A model generated the notes under the pieces. It had not been told where the DNA came from, did not search any database, and saw only the letters and a list, made by a program, of their open reading frames with translations. Source: Planctomycetota bacterium (GTDB taxonomy: Bacteria; Planctomycetota; B15-G4; JADJEK01). Taken from it: 60,617 bases of DNA. The position numbers were made by a program, and so were the translations under genes. The stretch is taken from positions 1 through 60,617 of the forward strand of contig JACQZJ010000055.1 of assembly GCA_016213895.1 (NCBI GenBank), written 5' to 3'. Below, one piece after another: positions 4,260 to 15,302 of this stretch (positions are counted from its first letter, which is position 1; every line of letters begins with the position of its first letter).

Positions 4260-5795
4260 ATGAAGAAGCCGGTCAAGTACGTTCTGCTGACCCTCTTCGG
4301 ATGCGTGCTGTCCCTGCTGCTGCTCGAGGGTGGCCTGCAGGTCGCGGCCTTCCTGGTGACGCAGGCGGCGGAGTCGCGAGGCGCGCCTTCCGCGCCGCGC
4401 GGCGCCGGGGAGAAGGTCGTGTTGTGCGTGGGCGACTCCTTCACCTTCGGTGTGGGCGCGAGCGACGCCAGCAGGTCCTATCCGGGAATGCTGCAGCAGC
4501 ATCTCAACGAGAGTCCGGCCGGCGAAGCGGGCGCCGCGGCCGCGTGGCGCGTGGTCAACGGCGGCTGGCCCGGCCGGAACTCCGCGGAACTTCTGCAGCG
4601 CATGCCGCGCTTCCTGACCGACGAACGACCTGACTACGTCTGCGTCCTGGTCGGCAAGAACAACCGCTGGAGCCGCGACGAGATGGATCTCCCTCCTCCC
4701 GCGCTCGCCGAGGGCTCTGGCGAGAGCCGCGGCTTCCAGTGGCGCCTGCGTACGCTCCGGCTCCTCCAGACCCTGTGGGCCAACCTCGGCGAGCCGGATG
4801 CCGGATCCGCGCAGCCGCGGGCGAAGCAGGACGATCCCCAGGCGAGGAAGGAAGGCTCTCGGTCCGGGCAGAAGAGCCCCTTGCTTATCCCTGAGGCGCA
4901 GCAGACCCCCGAGTTCCGCGCGTTGAAGGACGCCGGCCGCAAGCTGCAGAAGGGCGACAGGGCCTTTGCCGAGCGCGCGGCCGCCGAGATGCGGGAGCGC
5001 GTGCGCGCGCTCGACGACCTGCCGACCGAGATGCAGTACGTGATGCTGCTCGTCGGCCTGTCGCGGCAGGAGGAGCTGATCGACGAGTGCTTCTTCGCCA
5101 GCGAGAAGTACGGCAAGAGCGCCGAGCTCTGCGCGCTGGTCATCTTCCCGCTGGCGCAGCTCGGCCGCTTCGACGAGGCGCTCTCGTGGGCGGACGAGGC
5201 CTTCCGCCTGCGCGGCCCGGGCGAGCCCAAGCCCTACGCGCACCGCGCGCGCGTCTACCGCAAGATGGGGCGGACGGTCGACGCGCTGCGGGACACGATC
5301 CAGGCCTTCGCGCAGGACCGGGACCGCACCTACCTCGAGAAGGAGCTGGTCAAGCTCTACATGAGGGACGCCGCCGTGCACGAGCAGCTCGAGGAGATGG
5401 CCGGGCCGCTCGGGCTGGCGCAAGAGGACCTCGAGACGCTTCGCGCCGTGGCGGCCGCGGCGCACGCGCAGCTCCTGGCCGAGCGCGCCGGTCCGGAGGA
5501 TTCCGACACGCGCGTGCGTCTCGAGCAGGATCTCAGGCACTTCGTCTCCCTCGTGCGCCAGAGCGGCGCGCAGCCGCTGCTCTTGACCTATCCGCGCAAC
5601 CTCGGTCCGATCCAGCAGGGGCTGCGCACCGTGGCCGAGGACGAGGGAGCGCTGCTCGTCGACCTGGAGCCGGTGTTCGCCGAGCTGCTCGAGACCGCGG
5701 CCGAGGAGGACTACTTCATCGCCGACGGCCACTGCAATGACGCGGGCTACGCGGTCATGGCGCGCGCGGTCGCGGCCGCGATCCGGGGGCGCTGA
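4260..5795 (+). CDS. Membrane-anchored SGNH/GDSL-type hydrolase with helical repeat middle
   Basis: 511 aa from ATG 4260; the open frame begins earlier (4104) but lacks coding character there. Residues 8-32 form an N-terminal membrane anchor. GDSFTFG at 58-64 (S60 as block I nucleophile), NGGWPGRNS (block II Gly) and GKNNRW (block III Asn) follow, and a C-terminal DGHCNDAGY provides the Asp-His dyad. The middle (about 210-400) is alpha-helical with TPR-like character. This architecture matches uncharacterised SGNH proteins of large-genome environmental bacteria that often act on acylated glycans at the cell surface. Esterase activity is inferred from motifs only. Confidence 0.8.
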   Translation: MKKPVKYVLLTLFGCVLSLLLLEGGLQVAAFLVTQAAESRGAPSAPRGAGEKVVLCVGDSFTFGVGASDASRSYPGMLQQHLNESPAGEAGAAAAWRVVNGGWPGRNSAELLQRMPRFLTDERPDYVCVLVGKNNRWSRDEMDLPPPALAEGSGESRGFQWRLRTLRLLQTLWANLGEPDAGSAQPRAKQDDPQARKEGSRSGQKSPLLIPEAQQTPEFRALKDAGRKLQKGDRAFAERAAAEMRERVRALDDLPTEMQYVMLLVGLSRQEELIDECFFASEKYGKSAELCALVIFPLAQLGRFDEALSWADEAFRLRGPGEPKPYAHRARVYRKMGRTVDALRDTIQAFAQDRDRTYLEKELVKLYMRDAAVHEQLEEMAGPLGLAQEDLETLRAVAAAAHAQLLAERAGPEDSDTRVRLEQDLRHFVSLVRQSGAQPLLLTYPRNLGPIQQGLRTVAEDEGALLVDLEPVFAELLETAAEEDYFIADGHCNDAGYAVMARAVAAAIRGR

Positions 5796-5803
5796 GCCGC
5801 CGG

Positions 5804-5869
5804 TCGCCGCAGGAATGACGCACGTGCGTCGTTTAAATGATTGACCGGTCATTCTTGAATGATACATCA
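5804..5869. repeat. Upstream copy of a 66-bp imperfect direct repeat flanking the AlbA_2 gene
   Basis: Aligns without gaps to 7613-7678 (offset 1809), with 53 of 66 positions identical by my count. It contains two palindromes whose centres are 21 bases apart: TCGTTTAAATGA (5829-5840, one mismatch) and TCATTCTTGAATGA (5849-5862, perfect arms). A third perfect palindrome, GAATGAT-AC-ATCATTC (5857-5872), overlaps the second and is not conserved in the other copy. Confidence 0.85.
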
Positions 5870-5872
5870 TTC
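5829..5872 (+). promoter_or_regulatory. Operator/promoter region of the AlbA_2 regulator gene
   Basis: Two or three TCATT/AATGA palindromes two helical turns apart overlap a candidate promoter: TTGACC (5841-5846), 16 bases, TACATC (5863-5868). Transcription would then begin near 5875, only a few bases before ATG 5879, so the mRNA would be nearly leaderless. No Shine-Dalgarno is visible, which agrees. Autoregulation by the downstream winged-helix protein is an inference from position. Confidence 0.6.
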
Positions 5873-5878
5873 TACGCC

Positions 5879-7627
5879 ATGAGGACCTCCATCGACCGCA
5901 AGGGCCTGCTGGGCAGGCTCGACGGCGCTCCGGCGGACGCGCTCGAATCCGAAACCCTCGAATGCAAGGGGTGGGACCAGGATCCTCGCCGCTGGAAGGT
6001 CCAGGTGAGGGAGACCCGAGAGGCCGTCGTGTGCCTGGCGAACCGCCGGGGCGGGACGATTCTCCTGGGGATCGCGGATGGCGCACGCACGCGGAAGGAG
6101 GCCATCGTCGGAGTTGGGGATCTCGATGCCGAGGCGTTGCGGCGTGAGATCTACCGCGGAACGGCGCCGCCGCTCCTGGTCGAGATCGAGGAGTGGGTCG
6201 AGCCCGAAGGACGGCTGCTCGCGGTTCACGTCCCGCGAGGCGTCCCTCCGCACACAACGACCGAAGGGATCGGCAAGATTCGGGTCGGGAAGGAATGTCG
6301 CCCGCTGACCGGCGCCGATCTCACACGCCTCGTCCTCGAGAGCCGCAGCGTCGATCTCACGTGGGAGGTGGTCGCGAAGGCCCGTCCCGCGGATCTGGAC
6401 CCAGTACAAGTGAAGGCGCTCCGCACGCTCCTCGCCCGCGAGGGAGGTAAGCCAGCGTTGGCTGCGCTTACGTCCAAAGAGATGCTTGCGAATCTGGGGC
6501 TCGTGCGTGACGACGGAGTGAGCCTCGCGGCGATCCTTCTGCTGGGCAGGGGAGCGGCCATCGCCCGCTTCGCGCCGCAGCACGAGGTCACCGTCATCCG
6601 CTACGATTCTCCGACGCACTTCGACAAGCGCTACGACCTGAAGGAGCCCTTGCTTGCTGTTCTCGACCGCATGCAGCGGATCCTCGAGGATCACATGCGC
6701 CTCACCAGCGTTCAGGAACGAGGTTTCGGCGAGCTCCTCTTCCCGGACATCTCGTGGCTCGCCGCGCGAGAGGCCATCTTGAACGCGCTGGCGCATCGCG
6801 ACTGGTTCCAGCACCAGTCCGTGTTCGTGGAGATGCGCCCTGGTCGGCTCGAGGTCGCAAGCCCAGGCGGGTTCCTCGGCGGTGTGACACCGGACAACAT
6901 CCTTCGCCACCCTCCGGTCCGCCGGAATCCTCTCCTCGCCGAGACGTTCCAGGCGATCGGCTTCGTCAATCGCGCGGGCTTGGGAGTGGACAGGATCTAC
7001 GAGGATCTGCTGCGCTCGGGGAAGGGAATCCCCAGCTACGAAGCGGACGAAGCGGGCGTGCGGCTGAAGCTGCCGACGCGCACGCACGAGGCGTTTGCTC
7101 GTTTCGTGGCGGAGGAGGAGCGCGCCCGCCGCCGGTTGGATCTCGACGATCTGGTCGTGCTGTGGACGGTCACCGCAAGGGGCGAGGCGAACCGCAAGTC
7201 TGCCGCCCGGAATCTCCAGCTTTCGGAGGACGATGCCAGCGACAAGCTCGCCGCCTTGCGTGGCAGAGGCCTTCTTGTCGCGCGCGGCAGAGGCCGTGGA
7301 ACTAGCTACCGTCTCGCGAGGCACCTGTCGGATCTCATACGAGGCCGCGCTGCCACGGACCTCGACATCGACCTGGACGAGGAGGCAGCCCGGCTGCGCG
7401 TGCAGTCGGTTCTTGCCGAGCGCGGGTCGCTGTCGAACGCCGATATCCGGGGGATGACGGGCTTGGCGCGCCAGGCCGCGGTTCGGCTGATGAATCGGCT
7501 GCGGGATGAGGACCTGGCAAGAGTCGCAGGTCGCGGCAGATCCGCGCGATGGCTGCCTGGGCCGACTCTCGTTGGCAAGTCGAAGCGGGGACGAGAACGG
7601 GGCGGGCGCCGTTCGCCGCGGGAATAA
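5879..7627 (+). CDS. AlbA_2 (Schlafen-like) / GHKL ATPase / winged-helix transcriptional regulator
   Basis: 582 aa from ATG 5879; an in-frame ATG at 5837 falls inside the operator palindrome and is unlikely. Residues about 20-145 are an AlbA_2 domain (ETLECKGW; CLANRRGGTILLGI at 52-65). About 210-410 is the COG2865-type linker and GHKL-like fold with REAILNALAHRDW (N302 as N-box Asn) and PGGFLGGVTPDNI. The C-terminal 150 residues hold two predicted winged-helix segments (about 415-475 and 500-565). Such proteins are described as ATP-binding transcriptional regulators with RecG-like C-terminal similarity. The gene stands alone between two copies of a 66-bp repeat bearing operator palindromes, so a self-regulating, possibly mobile unit is likely. 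Confidence 0.85.
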   Translation: MRTSIDRKGLLGRLDGAPADALESETLECKGWDQDPRRWKVQVRETREAVVCLANRRGGTILLGIADGARTRKEAIVGVGDLDAEALRREIYRGTAPPLLVEIEEWVEPEGRLLAVHVPRGVPPHTTTEGIGKIRVGKECRPLTGADLTRLVLESRSVDLTWEVVAKARPADLDPVQVKALRTLLAREGGKPALAALTSKEMLANLGLVRDDGVSLAAILLLGRGAAIARFAPQHEVTVIRYDSPTHFDKRYDLKEPLLAVLDRMQRILEDHMRLTSVQERGFGELLFPDISWLAAREAILNALAHRDWFQHQSVFVEMRPGRLEVASPGGFLGGVTPDNILRHPPVRRNPLLAETFQAIGFVNRAGLGVDRIYEDLLRSGKGIPSYEADEAGVRLKLPTRTHEAFARFVAEEERARRRLDLDDLVVLWTVTARGEANRKSAARNLQLSEDDASDKLAALRGRGLLVARGRGRGTSYRLARHLSDLIRGRAATDLDIDLDEEAARLRVQSVLAERGSLSNADIRGMTGLARQAAVRLMNRLRDEDLARVAGRGRSARWLPGPTLVGKSKRGRERGGRRSPRE

Positions 7628-7678
7628 TGCACCAGCGTCATTCGAATGATTGTCTGGTCATTCCGGAATGAGACATCA
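7613..7678. repeat. Downstream copy of the 66-bp direct repeat, with paired palindromes
   Basis: Begins just inside the 3' end of the AlbA_2 gene (its first 15 bases are coding) and ends at 7678. It carries TCATTCGAATGA (7638-7649, perfect) and TCATTCCGGAATGA (7658-7671, perfect), again with centres 21 bases apart. TTGTCT (7650-7655) occupies the place of TTGACC in the first copy. The palindromes here are better than in the upstream copy. Confidence 0.85.
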
Positions 7679-7732
7679 AAACTGGCCGAGAGAGCCTCCG
7701 AGAGCCAGAAACTGGCTTCAGAGAGCGTAGGG

Positions 7733-7740
7733 GCTATGCT
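7733..7740 (+). promoter_or_regulatory. Putative -10 element (GCTATGCT) of the lipoprotein gene
   Basis: GCTATGCT, 52 bases before the start codon at 7793 and within the recurrent GCTAnnnT pattern. The palindromes of the second repeat lie about 65 bases further upstream, so the AlbA_2 regulator could also act here. Confidence 0.35.
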
Positions 7741-7792
7741 GGGGCAGAACGCGTCGATCCGCGGGCAGCGAAGCGCGAAGGAGGTAGACATC

Positions 7793-8188
7793 ATGGGGTT
7801 CGAAAGCACGGGGCTTCGGCGCGGGGACGTGGTTGTCGCATGCGCCCTCGCCCTACTTGCGGCGCCGCTGCATGCGTGCGCCGGGAGGCAGGTCCAAGCG
7901 GAATCCGTCCCGGCGCCCGGGCTCACGATCACGAACGCGGACGCGTCCTGGCTGCAGGGGTTCGTCATCTACACGGGAGGCGTGTCGGGCTGGGACTCGG
8001 ACGGCGAGGAGTCCGTCATCAACCTCGGGACCTCGCGCGGAGCCGTGACCCTGCGCGGTTCCGAGGCGGGCCCCATCCGTGACATGGTGAAGAAGCAGGT
8101 CGACCGCGGCCTGATCGCCGGGAGCACCGATGTCTCGCTCGAGCAAACCTCGGGCGTGAGTATTCCCGAGGACGAGACTCCCGATTGA
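7793..8188 (+). CDS. Small lipoprotein of unknown function
   Basis: 131 aa from ATG 7793 with an excellent ribosome site (AAGGAGGT, 7 bases upstream). Residues 12-28 form the hydrophobic region, ending in the lipobox LHAC with C29 as the lipid-modified cysteine. The mature protein has no motif I recognise; it contains a short beta-rich middle (GLTITNADASWLQGF) and an acidic C-terminus. Its promoter region sits directly behind the second operator repeat, so it is a candidate target of the AlbA_2 regulator. The next gene starts 10 bases downstream, suggesting one transcript. Confidence 0.75.
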   Translation: MGFESTGLRRGDVVVACALALLAAPLHACAGRQVQAESVPAPGLTITNADASWLQGFVIYTGGVSGWDSDGEESVINLGTSRGAVTLRGSEAGPIRDMVKKQVDRGLIAGSTDVSLEQTSGVSIPEDETPD

Positions 8189-8198
8189 GGCGCGGGCG

Positions 8199-9311
8199 AT
8201 GACCAGGTTGCGCGCCGGAGCTTGGGCTTTGGCCGGGCTGCTCGGCCTGGCCGTGATTCTGCTCTTCGCGAACCGGTTCAGGCAGGAGGCCGAGAATGGC
8301 TCCTCGCCGCACGCGCAGGGGTCCGATTCCGGGGAGGCGCCGCTCGGGGAGGAGACCTCCTCGGCCTCCGAAGAGGCGGTGCACGCCGAGGAACCGATCC
8401 GCGAGGGCGCTCCGGAGGAGCTCGCCTGCGCAATCCACGGCGTGGTGTTCGACCTGCTCGGCGGCCCGATCGCGGGCGCGGAGGTGACGGCCCTCTGCTA
8501 TGGCGGCCCGGACGGCTTCCTGACTGGAGTCGGACTCCCGGTCGAAAGCGCGGGTCCGCGAACCGCCGGCTCGTGCACCACCGACGACCTCGGCCGCTTT
8601 CACATTCCGCTGCCGTTCGCGGCTGATCGACACTTCGTGCGGATCAAGGCTCCCGGCTACGCGGACGCGGAGGAATCGCGCAGCTTTTCTCTGTGGCCCG
8701 GCCAAGACATCGATCTGGGCCGTTTCGGACTGAAGCCCTGCGCGCGCCTCGCGGGCCGCGTCCTGGATGTCGCCGGCAGGGGGATCGCGGCCGCCTCGGT
8801 CCTGGTGAATGGAGAGCCATGCGCAATGACCGGCGAGGACGGCGGCTTCGACATCGCTGGCTCGCCCTCGGGGCGGGCGTGGCTGCTTGCGCTGGCCGCG
8901 GACGGCGCGACAGCGCCGGAGGACGTGCTGCTCCTGCGCGTGCGCGCGGGCGAGCGGCTGAGCGGCCTCGTCCTCATCGTGAGAGGGGCACCCGAGGTTC
9001 CGCGACTGTCTCGCTCTGGGTTGCACGAGCCTCGAAGGCCGCTACGAAATGGGTCCGCTTCCCGCCGGGCGCTACGCCCTGCGCCTGGCACTTCCGGACG
9101 AGAGCTGGGGCTTCGACCACTGCGTGGTCGACGTCCCGGCCGGGGCGGTAGCTCGCGCCGACTTCGTGCTCGCTCGCGCGCTGATCGAAGGAAGCATCGT
9201 GCGCGACACGAACTCGGCTCCGCTGGGCGATGCCTGGGTCGTCTTCACGCCGTGCGAGACTGCCGGCGCGCCCGGCCTGGAGGAGCTGGGTGTCTGCGTG
9301 GTGGAAGCTGA
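8199..9311 (+). CDS. Carboxypeptidase-regulatory-like membrane-anchored protein, N-terminal part (frameshifted)
   Basis: From ATG 8199 the frame encodes a membrane anchor (residues 8-27), an acidic Ser/Glu-rich linker, then two carboxypeptidase-regulatory-like beta modules (IHGVVFDLLGGPIAGAEVTA and LAGRVLDVAGRGIAAASVLV). Coding character ends near 8990, after LSGLVLIVRGAPEV. Past that point this frame gives low-complexity Arg/Pro sequence, while the natural continuation lies in the frame at 9049-9738. A single-base indel between about 8985 and 9045 would join them into a protein of about 510 aa. Function unknown; such modules act as periplasmic or surface scaffolds. Confidence 0.7.
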   Translation: MTRLRAGAWALAGLLGLAVILLFANRFRQEAENGSSPHAQGSDSGEAPLGEETSSASEEAVHAEEPIREGAPEELACAIHGVVFDLLGGPIAGAEVTALCYGGPDGFLTGVGLPVESAGPRTAGSCTTDDLGRFHIPLPFAADRHFVRIKAPGYADAEESRSFSLWPGQDIDLGRFGLKPCARLAGRVLDVAGRGIAAASVLVNGEPCAMTGEDGGFDIAGSPSGRAWLLALAADGATAPEDVLLLRVRAGERLSGLVLIVRGAPEVPRLSRSGLHEPRRPLRNGSASRRALRPAPGTSGRELGLRPLRGRRPGRGGSSRRLRARSRADRRKHRARHELGSAGRCLGRLHAVRDCRRARPGGAGCLRGGS

Positions 9312-9738
9312 CGAGAGGGGCCGCTTCCGCGAGATCCTGCCCGCGGGGCGCGACTACTCCTGCGAGGCATCGGACCCGACCGGAACGCTCCGCGCTCGCC
9401 GAATCGTGCGGCTCGAACCCGGACCAAACGACCTGACGATCCGCCTCGTTCCCTGCGGCGAGGTCGAGGTGCGGCTCGACTCCGGGTTGGTTCGAGCGGC
9501 CGGTCCGTGGCTCGATCGCGGCGCGGCGCCCGATGTTCTCGTCACGCCGAGCGTCTTCTACGACCAGGGGAGGATGTGGCGCCTCGCGCCGGTGCGCGAG
9601 GGAGTCCACCGCGTGTCCGTGGAGCGCCTCGGGCCCGAGGGGAAGCCCGTCCTGCTCGAGCAGGAGGTGCAGGTCTCGGCGGGCGGCGAAGCCGAAGCAC
9701 GCTTCGCCGCGCTGGTGGAGACCGCCCCGCCGCAGTAG
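9049..9738 (+). CDS. Carboxypeptidase-regulatory-like protein, C-terminal part of the frameshifted gene
   Basis: The first ATG in this frame is 9049 (229 aa), but coding-like sequence begins a little earlier (LGCTSLEGRYEMGPLPAGRY). This segment continues the module pattern of 8199-8990: GPLPAGRYALRLALP is a typical end of a carboxypeptidase-regulatory module, and IEGSIVRDTNSAPLGDAWV starts the next. No independent Shine-Dalgarno or signal peptide is present, which supports it being the rest of the upstream gene rather than a separate one. Confidence 0.7.
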   Translation: MGPLPAGRYALRLALPDESWGFDHCVVDVPAGAVARADFVLARALIEGSIVRDTNSAPLGDAWVVFTPCETAGAPGLEELGVCVVEADERGRFREILPAGRDYSCEASDPTGTLRARRIVRLEPGPNDLTIRLVPCGEVEVRLDSGLVRAAGPWLDRGAAPDVLVTPSVFYDQGRMWRLAPVREGVHRVSVERLGPEGKPVLLEQEVQVSAGGEAEARFAALVETAPPQ

Positions 9739-13223: not shown

Positions 13224-13876
13224 CGCGGCCAGAAGCGGGGCGCGCCGCCGCTGCCGCGCGCCTGCGCATCCTGATCGTCGGCGTGGGCGGGCAGGGCGTC
13301 TTGACCGCGGCGCGCCACCTCGGCGAGGCCTGCCTGCGCACGGGACACGAGGCCGTGCTCGGGCAGCTCCACGGCATGTCGCAGCGCGGGGGCAGCGTCG
13401 AGTCGACCGTAGTCGTGGGCGGCGCGGAAAGCTCCTTCATCGAGGAGGGGGAGGCGGACGTGGTCCTCGGCCTGGAGCCGCTCGAGACGCTGCGCGCGCG
13501 GCCGCGCATGCACGCACAAACCAGGGTGGTGACCAGTACGACGCCGGTCGTGCCGCACCTGCTCTCGCAGATGGGCAAGCCCTATCCGCCCCTGCCGGAG
13601 ATCCTCTCCGCCATCCGTGCGGCCGCGCCCGACCTGACCACGCTCGACAGCGCGGCCATCGTCCGCCAAGCGGGGGCGCGGCGCGCGCTGAATGTCGCCA
13701 TGCTCGGGGCGCTCGCCGCTCTCGAGGTGCTGCCGTTTCCCGCCGCGGCCCTCTGGAGCGCGGTGGCGGCGCGCACGCCCGAGCGCTTCGTCGCGGGCAA
13801 CCGCCGCGCCTTCGAGCTGGGCGGGGCTGCGGCCAAGGCGCGCACGTCCCCCGCCCCCGGGAGGCCCGCATGCTGA
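13220..13876 (+). CDS. iorB: Indolepyruvate:ferredoxin oxidoreductase beta subunit
   Basis: 218 aa from GTG 13220, whose start overlaps the stop of iorA (GTGA), so translation is coupled. LRILIVGVGGQGVLTAARHL at 15-34 and HGMSQRGGSVES are characteristic of the gamma-domain fold of 2-oxoacid:ferredoxin oxidoreductases, here the IorB subunit. Length is close to the usual 190-220 aa. With IorA it forms the heterodimer that oxidises indolepyruvate and related transamination products of aromatic amino acids. No cluster-binding Cys motif is expected or seen in this subunit. Confidence 0.9.
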   Translation: MTRPEAGRAAAAARLRILIVGVGGQGVLTAARHLGEACLRTGHEAVLGQLHGMSQRGGSVESTVVVGGAESSFIEEGEADVVLGLEPLETLRARPRMHAQTRVVTSTTPVVPHLLSQMGKPYPPLPEILSAIRAAAPDLTTLDSAAIVRQAGARRALNVAMLGALAALEVLPFPAAALWSAVAARTPERFVAGNRRAFELGGAAAKARTSPAPGRPAC

Positions 13877-15302
13877 CGCGTCTCAAGGTCTCGGGCTTCA
13901 AGAATCTGGCGGGCGTCGAGGTGCGCTTCGGCCCGTTCACCTGTGTCGCGGGCGAGAACGGCGCGGGCAAGTCCAACCTCTTCGACGCCATCCTCTTCCT
14001 CGGCGCACTGGCCGAGAAGTCGCTCCTCGAGGCGGTCACCACGGTGCGCGGCGAGACGCGCGGCGCGGACGCGCTGCGCGTGTTCTCGCACTCGTCCCGC
14101 CCGACGCCGGCGACGACCTCGGGCAGAGCGCGCGCGCCGCCACGACGCTTCTGCGCTACTCCTTGACCATCAAGGCGCGCGCCGCGGGCGCGGGAGCGAT
14201 TCCACGTCTCGAGGTCGTCGACGAACGCCTGGACTACGTGCGGCGCAGCGGGCAGGGCCCGGTGCTGCCCTTCGCGCGCGGCAAGAAGGCGTGGCGCGAC
14301 TCCGTGCTGCGCGGCAAGAGAACAAGCCCGTTCATCTCCACCGAGCAGGCCGGCGGCGAGACCTTCATCCGCGTGCACGAGGACAGCGGCCATCAGGGGC
14401 GCGCGCGCAAGGTCAAGGCGGACGGGCTGGGCCGGACCGTGCTTTCCACCTTGAACACCGCGGAGACTCCCACGGCCCTGGTCGCGCGGCGCGAGATGCA
14501 GTCCTGGCAGCTCCTGCAGCTCGAGCCCGCGCGCCTGCGCGGCCCGGACGACCTGAAGGCCGGCGCGCGGCTCGGCCCGGACGGCCGCGGGCTCGCGGCC
14601 ACGCTGCAGCGGCTCCTCGCCGTAGACGGCGGCGCGGCGGCGGGCGCGGCGCGCGCGCGCCTGGCGCAGCGCCTGCTCGAACTCAACGACGACGTCGAGG
14701 ACGTGTGGGTCGACCGCGACGAGGGGCGCGAGGCGCTCACGCTCATGGCGCGCTCGCGCGACGGCGTCGAGTTCCGCGCGCGCGACCTCTCGGACGGCAC
14801 GCTGCGCTTCCTCGCCCTGGCCGTGCTCGAGCAGGACCCGACCTGGAGCGGCCTGCTCTGCCTGGAGGAGCCCGAGAACGGCATCCATCCCACGCGCCTG
14901 CCGGCCATGCTGGAGCTGCTCGGCGACATGGCCGCCGACCTCGACCGGCCCGCGGGCGCGGACAACCCGCTGCGCCAGGTGATCGTCAACACGCACAGCC
15001 CGCAGGTGGTCGGCCTCGCGCCCGACGACTGCATGATCTTCGCGGGCAGCGAGCCGGGCCTGGTGCAGGGCCAGCGCATCCGCTCGCTTTCCTTCCTGCC
15101 GCTCGACGGCACCTGGCGCGCCGCGGGCGGGGCGGCGCGCTCCGTGTCCAAGGAGGCGGTGCTGCAGTTCCTGAACGTGCTGCCGGCGGTACTCGAGGAG
15201 GAAGAGGGCGCGGCGCAGAAGGGCCGCGGCCGCCGCCCGCGCGTAGCCGAGCGCGACGGCATCCGGCAGATGCTGCTCTTCCCGGGTGAAGAGGCGCCTT
15301 GA
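13870..15302 (+). pseudogene. RecF/SMC-like AAA ATPase, interrupted by one frameshift
   Basis: Starts at ATG 13870, overlapping the end of iorB by 7 bases. The first frame (to 14166) encodes LTRLKVSGFKNLAGVEVRFG and Walker A GENGAGKS at 31-38. From about 14090 the coding pattern moves to the frame that ends at 15302 (PDAGDDLGQSARAATTLLRY...). This part has the ABC-like signature (DLSDGTLRFLAL), Walker B (GLLCLEEPENGIHP) and the H-loop (VIVNTHSPQVVG). Joined, the protein is about 475 aa, the size of stand-alone AAA_21-type ATPases related to OLD nucleases but with no TOPRIM domain visible. A single missing base near 14090-14115 explains the break, and assembly error is as likely as decay. Confidence 0.75.

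What the first reader, a model, noticed from the sequence alone, without database searches (positions are those of the whole stretch)
5804..7678. AlbA_2/GHKL/winged-helix regulator framed by 66-bp direct repeats with paired palindromic operators
Bases 5804-5869 and 7613-7678 align without a gap (53 of 66 identical by my count), one on each side of a single AlbA_2-type gene. Each copy has two TCATT...AATGA palindromes whose centres are exactly 21 bases apart, two helical turns, as for cooperative binding by a dimer pair. The downstream copy even has more perfect palindromes. The upstream copy overlaps a TTGACC-16-TACATC promoter that would give a leaderless message starting at ATG 5879. A direct repeat at both ends of a one-gene unit can mean (a) an autoregulator that controls its own and the next gene, the lipoprotein at 7793, or (b) a one-gene mobile cassette whose integration or excision uses the repeats. 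I know of no described system with this exact layout.
Basis: partly seen in the sequence, partly recalled or inferred. Interest (0 to 1): 0.82.

Follow-up and report, generated by a model that had tools for sequence, protein, structure and literature searches.

The report
Defence-type regulator flanked by own operators
A bacterial gene related to anti-phage 'Schlafen' regulators carries the same cluster of short palindromic binding sites just before its start and just after its stop; many relatives also keep such sites right behind the gene, which suggests a little-noticed way these defence genes control themselves and the gene that follows.

Summary
In detail: 53 of 66 bases identical, palindrome centres 21 bp apart, one AlbA_2-HATPase_c_4-winged-helix gene between the copies. 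Each copy is an array of alternating AATGA/TCATT half-sites. Half-sites are conserved while spacers vary (p=0.003), and such palindromes are almost absent elsewhere in the 5.5-Mb genome. The upstream array covers the region's only sigma-70-like promoter, placed for a leaderless message, and is kept in another genus at the same distance from the ATG. The downstream array overlaps the stop codon.
Relatives show that the downstream site is part of a wider pattern: many Schlafen-GHKL-winged-helix genes, in several phyla and on plasmids and phages, carry a gene-specific repeat array from the stop codon onward. Proteins about 81% identical except in the last ~60 residues have unrelated arrays, so the C-terminal winged helix probably reads the array. 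In defence operons the array sits before the next gene (hsdR, hsdS, DruE-like helicase). I conclude: operators of an orphan defence-type controller, acting on itself and probably on the next gene. The mobile-cassette reading is not supported. The 3' array is not universal: one of two blind tests failed.

The parts
5804..5871 (+). Upstream operator array: half-sites AATGA 5814-5818, TCGTT 5829-5833, AATGA 5836-5840, TCATT 5849-5853, AATGA 5858-5862, TCATT 5867-5871
   Evidence: Sequence; 53/66 identity to downstream copy; conserved in G001 and, at the same spacing to ATG, in G002
5841..5870 (+). Promoter TTGACC-18-CATCAT inside the array, placed for a leaderless mRNA starting at about ATG 5879
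   Evidence: Only sigma-70-like match in 5700-7900; relatives have TATTAT 6-8 nt before the start codon
5879..7627 (+). Regulator gene, 582 aa, SLFN_AlbA_2 + HATPase_c_4 + two winged helices
   Evidence: Pfam, fold model, 3LMM match
5945..6307 (+). SLFN_AlbA_2 domain (residues 23-143); E23, E28, D67 align with the Schlafen carboxylate triad
   Evidence: triad described in PMC5862951
6815..7069 (+). HATPase_c_4 (GHKL ATPase) domain, residues 313-397
   Evidence: Pfam E=1.3e-15
7379..7558 (+). C-terminal winged helix (residues 501-560), predicted reader of the arrays; recognition helix 531-543
   Evidence: Fold model; weak DIP2311-like_C match, below cut-off; co-variation with arrays in relatives
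7613..7678 (+). Downstream operator array: half-sites AATAA 7623-7627 (contains the stop codon), TCATT 7638-7642, AATGA 7645-7649, TCATT 7658-7662, AATGA 7667-7671
   Evidence: with the upstream array the only spots in 30 kb where an 80-bp window holds five AATG/CATT
7793..8188 (+). Next gene: short lipoprotein-like ORF (LHAC box) with its own ribosome-binding site, possible second target
   Evidence: no Pfam or NCBIfam match for the longer reading of this ORF, 7646-8188

Best explanation
The two repeats are operators read by the gene's own product, a Schlafen-AlbA_2 / GHKL-ATPase / winged-helix controller. The protein binds the alternating AATGA/TCATT half-sites as cooperating dimers through its C-terminal winged helix. 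At the 5' end this shuts its own leaderless promoter. The 3' array is the family's second operator: in relatives inside restriction and BREX-like operons it lies directly behind the controller gene and in front of the next gene. Here the controller has become an orphan, and the 3' array is kept either to act on the next gene (lipoprotein-like, 7793) or to pair with the 5' array across the gene. Shown: the arrays, their conservation, the promoter match, the domains, the 3' arrays of relatives and their co-variation with the C-terminal domain. Inferred: binding, repression, the effect on the next gene, any looping.
For: Half-sites conserved while spacers vary. Sites are almost confined to this locus in two genomes. 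The 5' array and leaderless geometry are conserved across genera. 3' arrays occur in G304, G029, G229, G390, Aeromonas and rhizobial plasmid homologs; scored against 196 control gene ends, homolog groups give p 0.0014, 0.0029, 0.0020, 0.025. Blind set 1, p=0.001. In the MloB-type clade, TTGAY-N6-TTGAY found in a first set recurs 11 times in 3.2 kb after stops of a second set against once in 191 kb elsewhere, p=3e-19. The element is shared between unrelated replicons at 58-61% protein identity. Aeromonas and rhizobial proteins are 81-83% identical in the core but 42-47% in the last 62 columns and have unrelated arrays; Caballeronia (core 73-74%, C-term about 60% to rhizobia) keeps the rhizobial type. 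Defence-operon positions: MTase - array - homolog - array - DruE-like helicase in G304; hsdM-mloB-hsdS, mloB-hsdR and others.
Against: No binding data. The 3' array is not universal: absent behind G002, the own-genome paralog and G356, and blind set 2 showed no excess with the general statistic (p=0.47). The downstream copy in the window lacks a recognisable promoter, so control of the lipoprotein-like gene is unproven. Several relatives have 3' arrays facing a convergent gene (phage Musica, Sinorhizobium M14, G390), so 'operator of the next gene' cannot hold everywhere.
Confidence: 0.62

Rival explanations
1. The arrays act as RNA: the 3' array is a structured element behind the stop codon that the Schlafen-type domain or the winged helices bind or cut to control the messenger.
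For: Inverted half-sites can fold; some downstream regions fold better than shuffles (G304 z -5.1, G029 -3.2, NGR234 -3.5). One stem pair in the rhizobial element changes on both sides (G-C, G-U, U-A) in the sense strand. SelB winged helices, which bind an RNA hairpin, appear among weak fold matches.
Against: The same array lies upstream of the leaderless start in the window clade, where it would not be transcribed from that promoter. Folding gains are inconsistent and not sense-specific. MloB-type elements are direct repeats.
Confidence: 0.13
2. One-gene mobile cassette whose integration or excision uses the 66-bp repeats.
For: Direct repeats at both ends; the family is patchy (8 of 392 genomes of the phylum) and sits in different neighbourhoods.
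Against: Same locus with both, already diverged, repeats in the sister species; no other copy of the repeat found in the genome; half-site-only conservation; 3' arrays of most relatives are not copies of a 5' array. Empty sites could not be tested because the GDSL neighbour is not found in G002 or G003.
Confidence: 0.05
3. The downstream copy is only a relic of a local duplication of the 5' operator, without function.
For: No recognisable promoter in the downstream copy; spacers diverge quickly.
Against: In the window's downstream copy, 11 core differences from the sister species' copy fall 10 outside and 1 inside half-sites (p=0.002), and that one change (TGA to TAA) keeps the stop codon. Unrelated 3' arrays in relatives show that the position itself matters.
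Confidence: 0.15

Closest known systems
DIP2311 of Corynebacterium diphtheriae (PDB 3LMM), COG2865-type regulators
   Same: Same domain order; sequence match E=4.7e-30 with one protein and 1e-47 with the profile; best fold match
   Different: Structure only; no operators or function described in the papers I could search
Schlafen RNase + minimal histidine kinase (GHKL) + wHTH proteins of BREX and BREX-related loci (PMC12839542, which cites a 2025 preprint that bacterial Schlafens mediate anti-phage defence)
   Same: Same architecture; closest sampled homologs sit in such loci (G304 between MTase and DruE-like helicase; G029 near PtuAB-like genes and PglX)
   Different: The paper treats them as backup RNase effectors; a text search for inverted repeat and operator gave none. 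The window gene is not in such an operon.
MloB, a gene found in type I restriction loci
   Same: AlbA_2/GHKL/winged-helix gene beside hsdM, hsdS or hsdR; 3' element with TTGAY-N6-TTGAY in many
   Different: Direct rather than inverted half-sites; no 5' array noted
TrlG of Photorhabdus temperature restriction locus (PMC7554251)
   Same: Same Pfam pair AlbA_2 + HATPase_c_4; loss-of-function mutants relieve a growth restriction
   Different: In an operon with trlR and trlF; arrays not examined
Controller (C) proteins of restriction-modification systems (own knowledge)
   Same: Paired palindromic operators, autoregulation plus control of an effector gene
   Different: Small single-domain HTH proteins, unrelated fold; operators upstream only

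Membership tests
Schlafen-AlbA_2 / HATPase_c_4 / winged-helix regulators (COG2865, DIP2311-like) | SLFN_AlbA_2 domain at N-terminus | tested here: met
   PF04326 E=1.5e-14
Schlafen-AlbA_2 / HATPase_c_4 / winged-helix regulators (COG2865, DIP2311-like) | HATPase_c_4 domain | tested here: met
   PF13749 E=1.3e-15
Schlafen-AlbA_2 / HATPase_c_4 / winged-helix regulators (COG2865, DIP2311-like) | C-terminal winged helices | tested here: met
   Model shows H-H-H-E-E at 422-479 and 501-560; DIP2311-like_C match is below cut-off
Schlafen-type RNase | Three-carboxylate triad E/E/D | tested here: met
   E23, E28, D67 align with Slfn13 residues (PMC5862951); E-x4-E/D-x-K and D also conserved in A1 and in the MloB alignment A2
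Schlafen-type RNase | RNA cleavage activity | not testable with these tools
   Needs biochemistry
BREX / restriction-linked defence component | Gene lies in a defence operon | tested here: not met
   Direct neighbours are a GDSL lipase and a lipoprotein-like ORF; a HEC-01A-like ATPase is 6 kb away. Homologs G304 and G029 do meet it.
Mobile one-gene cassette | Empty site or several copies; recombinase | tested here: inconclusive
   No second copy of the repeat found in the genome and no recombinase domain; empty site not testable
Autoregulator with operator at its own promoter | Conserved palindromic sites overlapping the promoter | tested here: met
Autoregulator with operator at its own promoter | Protein binds the sites and changes expression | not testable with these tools
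   Needs EMSA, footprint, reporter

The most novel reading that the evidence does not exclude
Recombination at the 3' end then replaces both together and re-targets the controller in one step without breaking its circuit, as the Aeromonas and rhizobial types suggest. The window gene is a case in which the unit's array was also placed at the promoter.
Probability: 0.3. Interest if true: 0.78.

Novelty: new variant of a known kind. Interest (0 to 1): 0.6.

Why it matters
Schlafen-GHKL-winged-helix genes are reported beside BREX and related loci in more than a thousand taxa (PMC12839542), yet what they bind and how they are switched is open. Gene-specific arrays right behind these genes give, for many members, a predicted target site that can be read from the genome and tested directly. 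If the reader domain and the array are exchanged together, that explains how such controllers move between defence operons and stay functional.

Tried and rejected
Mobile cassette: looked for further repeat copies, for gene copies in plasmids, phages and viral contigs (only distant relatives) and for an empty site through the GDSL neighbour (not found in G002 or G003). A regulon elsewhere: the palindrome hardly occurs elsewhere; the extra sites (G000:C214, G001:C3) overlap predicted ORFs with no array. RNA structure: z-scores mixed and not strand-specific. A first repeat score based on exact hexamer pairs was dominated by GC-rich background and was replaced by a copy-number score with stop-anchored controls. 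Universality of the 3' array: rejected by the second blind set under the general score and by homologs without it (G002, paralog, G356, own L004, L006). Several IMG/VR relatives instead share one conserved element near TTTATTTAAGGC, without repeats. The neighbours of the own-genome paralog and of the G002 homolog gave no Pfam match.

Full report
1. Observation. The two 66-bp stretches are real and aligned as described: 53 of 66 identical, palindrome centres 21 bp apart in both. Reading the four copies available (window and sister species G001, contig DYIW01000202.1 = L013) shows that each is an array of five alternating half-sites, AATGA / TCATT / AATGA / TCATT / AATGA, at offsets 0, 15, 22, 35, 44. 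In the sister species the first pair is part of a perfect 20-bp palindrome, AATGACGCACGTGCGTCATT. Variable columns avoid the half-sites (2 of 25 against 11 of 24; p=0.003). TCATTN{2,4}AATGA is found four times in the 5.5-Mb genome, three of them here, and six times in the sister genome, four of them here; the reversed pattern gives none. The sister species has both arrays at the same locus with the same flanking genes.

2. The gene. ATG 5879 to TAA 7627 encodes 582 residues with SLFN_AlbA_2 and HATPase_c_4. The fold model (mean pLDDT 79) shows two C-terminal winged helices, residues 422-479 and 501-560. The closest solved structure by sequence and fold is DIP2311, 3LMM. A profile of seven homologs also finds vertebrate Schlafens. 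E23, E28 and D67 fall on the carboxylate triad needed for Slfn13 RNase activity (PMC5862951), and E-x4-E/D-x-K and the aspartate are conserved in both clade alignments. Activity is not shown.

3. The 5' array. It covers the only sigma-70-like promoter of the region, TTGACC-18-CATCAT. In another genus of the family (G002, 59% identity) the upstream region has the same design at the same distance: GGAATGAC..GTCAATGGAATGA..ACATTC..AAATGA..TATTATTC..ATG. The own-genome paralog (54%) and G304 (54%, another family) keep parts of it. This is what an autoregulatory operator would look like.

4. The 3' array. In the window and sister species the stop codon lies inside the first half-site of the downstream copy. 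Other relatives have an array at the same place but with a half-site of their own: G304 GAAATGAACC, G029 and G390 GAATGGC, G229 GCATTGA, a second G029 homolog AACGCAC, Aeromonas plasmids CTATCG, rhizobial plasmids TTTGGC. Counting AATG/CATT, the 80 bp after the stop are among the densest windows of the whole locus in six homologs (fractions 0.001-0.011). With a general copy-number score and ends of 196 other genes as controls, four homolog groups score higher (p 0.0014, 0.0029, 0.0020, 0.025), while five other AlbA_2/GHKL-related loci of the same genome do not (p 0.41). Several of the highest 'controls' were themselves arrays of this family (a G029 paralog remnant, and 5' arrays of G304 and G001). 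Homologs within a group are related, so these p-values are optimistic.

5. Blind tests. Set 1 (12 homologs from plasmids and phages, chosen before looking) was positive, p=0.001. Set 2 (16 scored IMG/VR relatives) was negative with the same score, p=0.47, and p=0.25 with a longer stretch. A specific element read from set 1, TTGA[CT]-N6-TTGA[CT], was then tested on set 2: 11 hits within 200 bp after the stop in 5 of 16 loci, against one hit in 191 kb elsewhere, p=3e-19 (hits within one locus are not independent, and I had seen the set 2 sequences before fixing the pattern, although the pattern itself is present in set 1). The 3' element is therefore strong but limited to certain lineages.

6. 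Who reads the array. Between Aeromonas and rhizobial proteins the core is 81-83% identical, but the last 62 columns, the second winged helix, only 42-47%; their arrays are unrelated. Caballeronia is less similar in the core (73-74% to the rhizobia) but keeps 60-62% in that region and keeps the rhizobial type of half-site. In this clade array similarity follows the C-terminal domain (Spearman 0.88) better than the core (0.67). Related arrays persist between unrelated replicons: TTGATCGGGTTTTGAT in phage Musica and three alphaproteobacterial plasmids (61% protein identity to Musica), about 22 of 25 bases between Aliarcobacter and Providencia (59%), about 17 of 20 between Picosynechococcus and Acidovorax (58%). 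The C-terminal winged helix is the likely reader.

7. Context. The best-placed relative, G304, stands between a type IIG/DrmMI-like methyltransferase and a DruE-like helicase-nuclease, with one array on each side. G029 has a cluster of homologs and array remnants beside PtuAB-like genes and PglX. Others lie between hsdM and hsdS (Aliarcobacter), before hsdR (Picosynechococcus, Acidovorax), in a DUF1156/phospholipase D anti-phage operon (Desulfosarcina), or between a methyltransferase and a DEAD-box helicase (Sulfitobacter, Phaeobacter). There the 3' array lies in the gap before the next gene. A 2026 survey reports this architecture beside BREX and related loci in at least 1017 taxa as presumed backup RNases; a search of its text for inverted repeats or operators gave none (PMC12839542).

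8. Conclusion. The window gene is best read as an orphan member of this controller family. The 5' array shuts its own leaderless promoter. The 3' array is the family's second operator, here before a lipoprotein-like gene. Binding, repression and any effect on the next gene are inferred. The lack of a recognisable promoter in the downstream copy, and the relatives whose 3' array faces a convergent gene (Musica, Sinorhizobium M14, G390), leave open whether the 3' array mainly serves the next gene, pairs with the 5' array by looping, or serves another purpose. A mobile cassette is unlikely.

9. Limits. No binding data; small numbers of close relatives (8 of 392 phylum genomes hold one); related sequences inflate the statistics; only open-licence papers could be searched, so an earlier description elsewhere cannot be excluded.

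Noticed in passing
window 13692-15302: AAA_21 ATPase resembling candidate defence protein HEC-01A (PADLOC 6.8e-66); its N-terminus appears in another frame (13870-14166), so it is frameshifted or misassembled.
   Followed up: partly
window 8199-9738: CarboxypepD_reg-type protein read in two overlapping frames (8199-9311 and 9049-9738), suggesting a frameshift near 9030.
   Followed up: no
L041 (G029:C152:102000-121000): Cluster of AlbA_2/GHKL homologs and 3'-end remnants, each with its own array, beside PtuAB-like genes and PglX: a defence island with repeated controllers.
   Followed up: partly
L072 (Klebsiella plasmid NZ_ON925022.1): Fragment with only the last 104 codons of the Aeromonas-type controller plus its complete 3' array, about 1.7 kb from an OXA-48-family gene: the C-terminal reader and array travelled together.
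   Followed up: no
L017/L047 (G001:C11): The sister species' copy of the own-genome paralog seems to have lost promoter and start codon: probably a pseudogene.
   Followed up: no
L102, L104, L105, L108: Four IMG/VR relatives share a conserved element after the stop (three: TTGTTTATTTAAGGCTTTCCCC; L108: TTGCTTATTTAAGCTTATCCC) instead of a repeat array.
   Followed up: no
L089 (Streptococcus satellite phage Javan328): A homolog stands next to the integrase of streptococcal satellite phages, where it may act as the element's regulator.
   Followed up: no
L043 (G390): The G390 homolog has a frameshifted or missing N-terminus but a complete 3' array.
   Followed up: no
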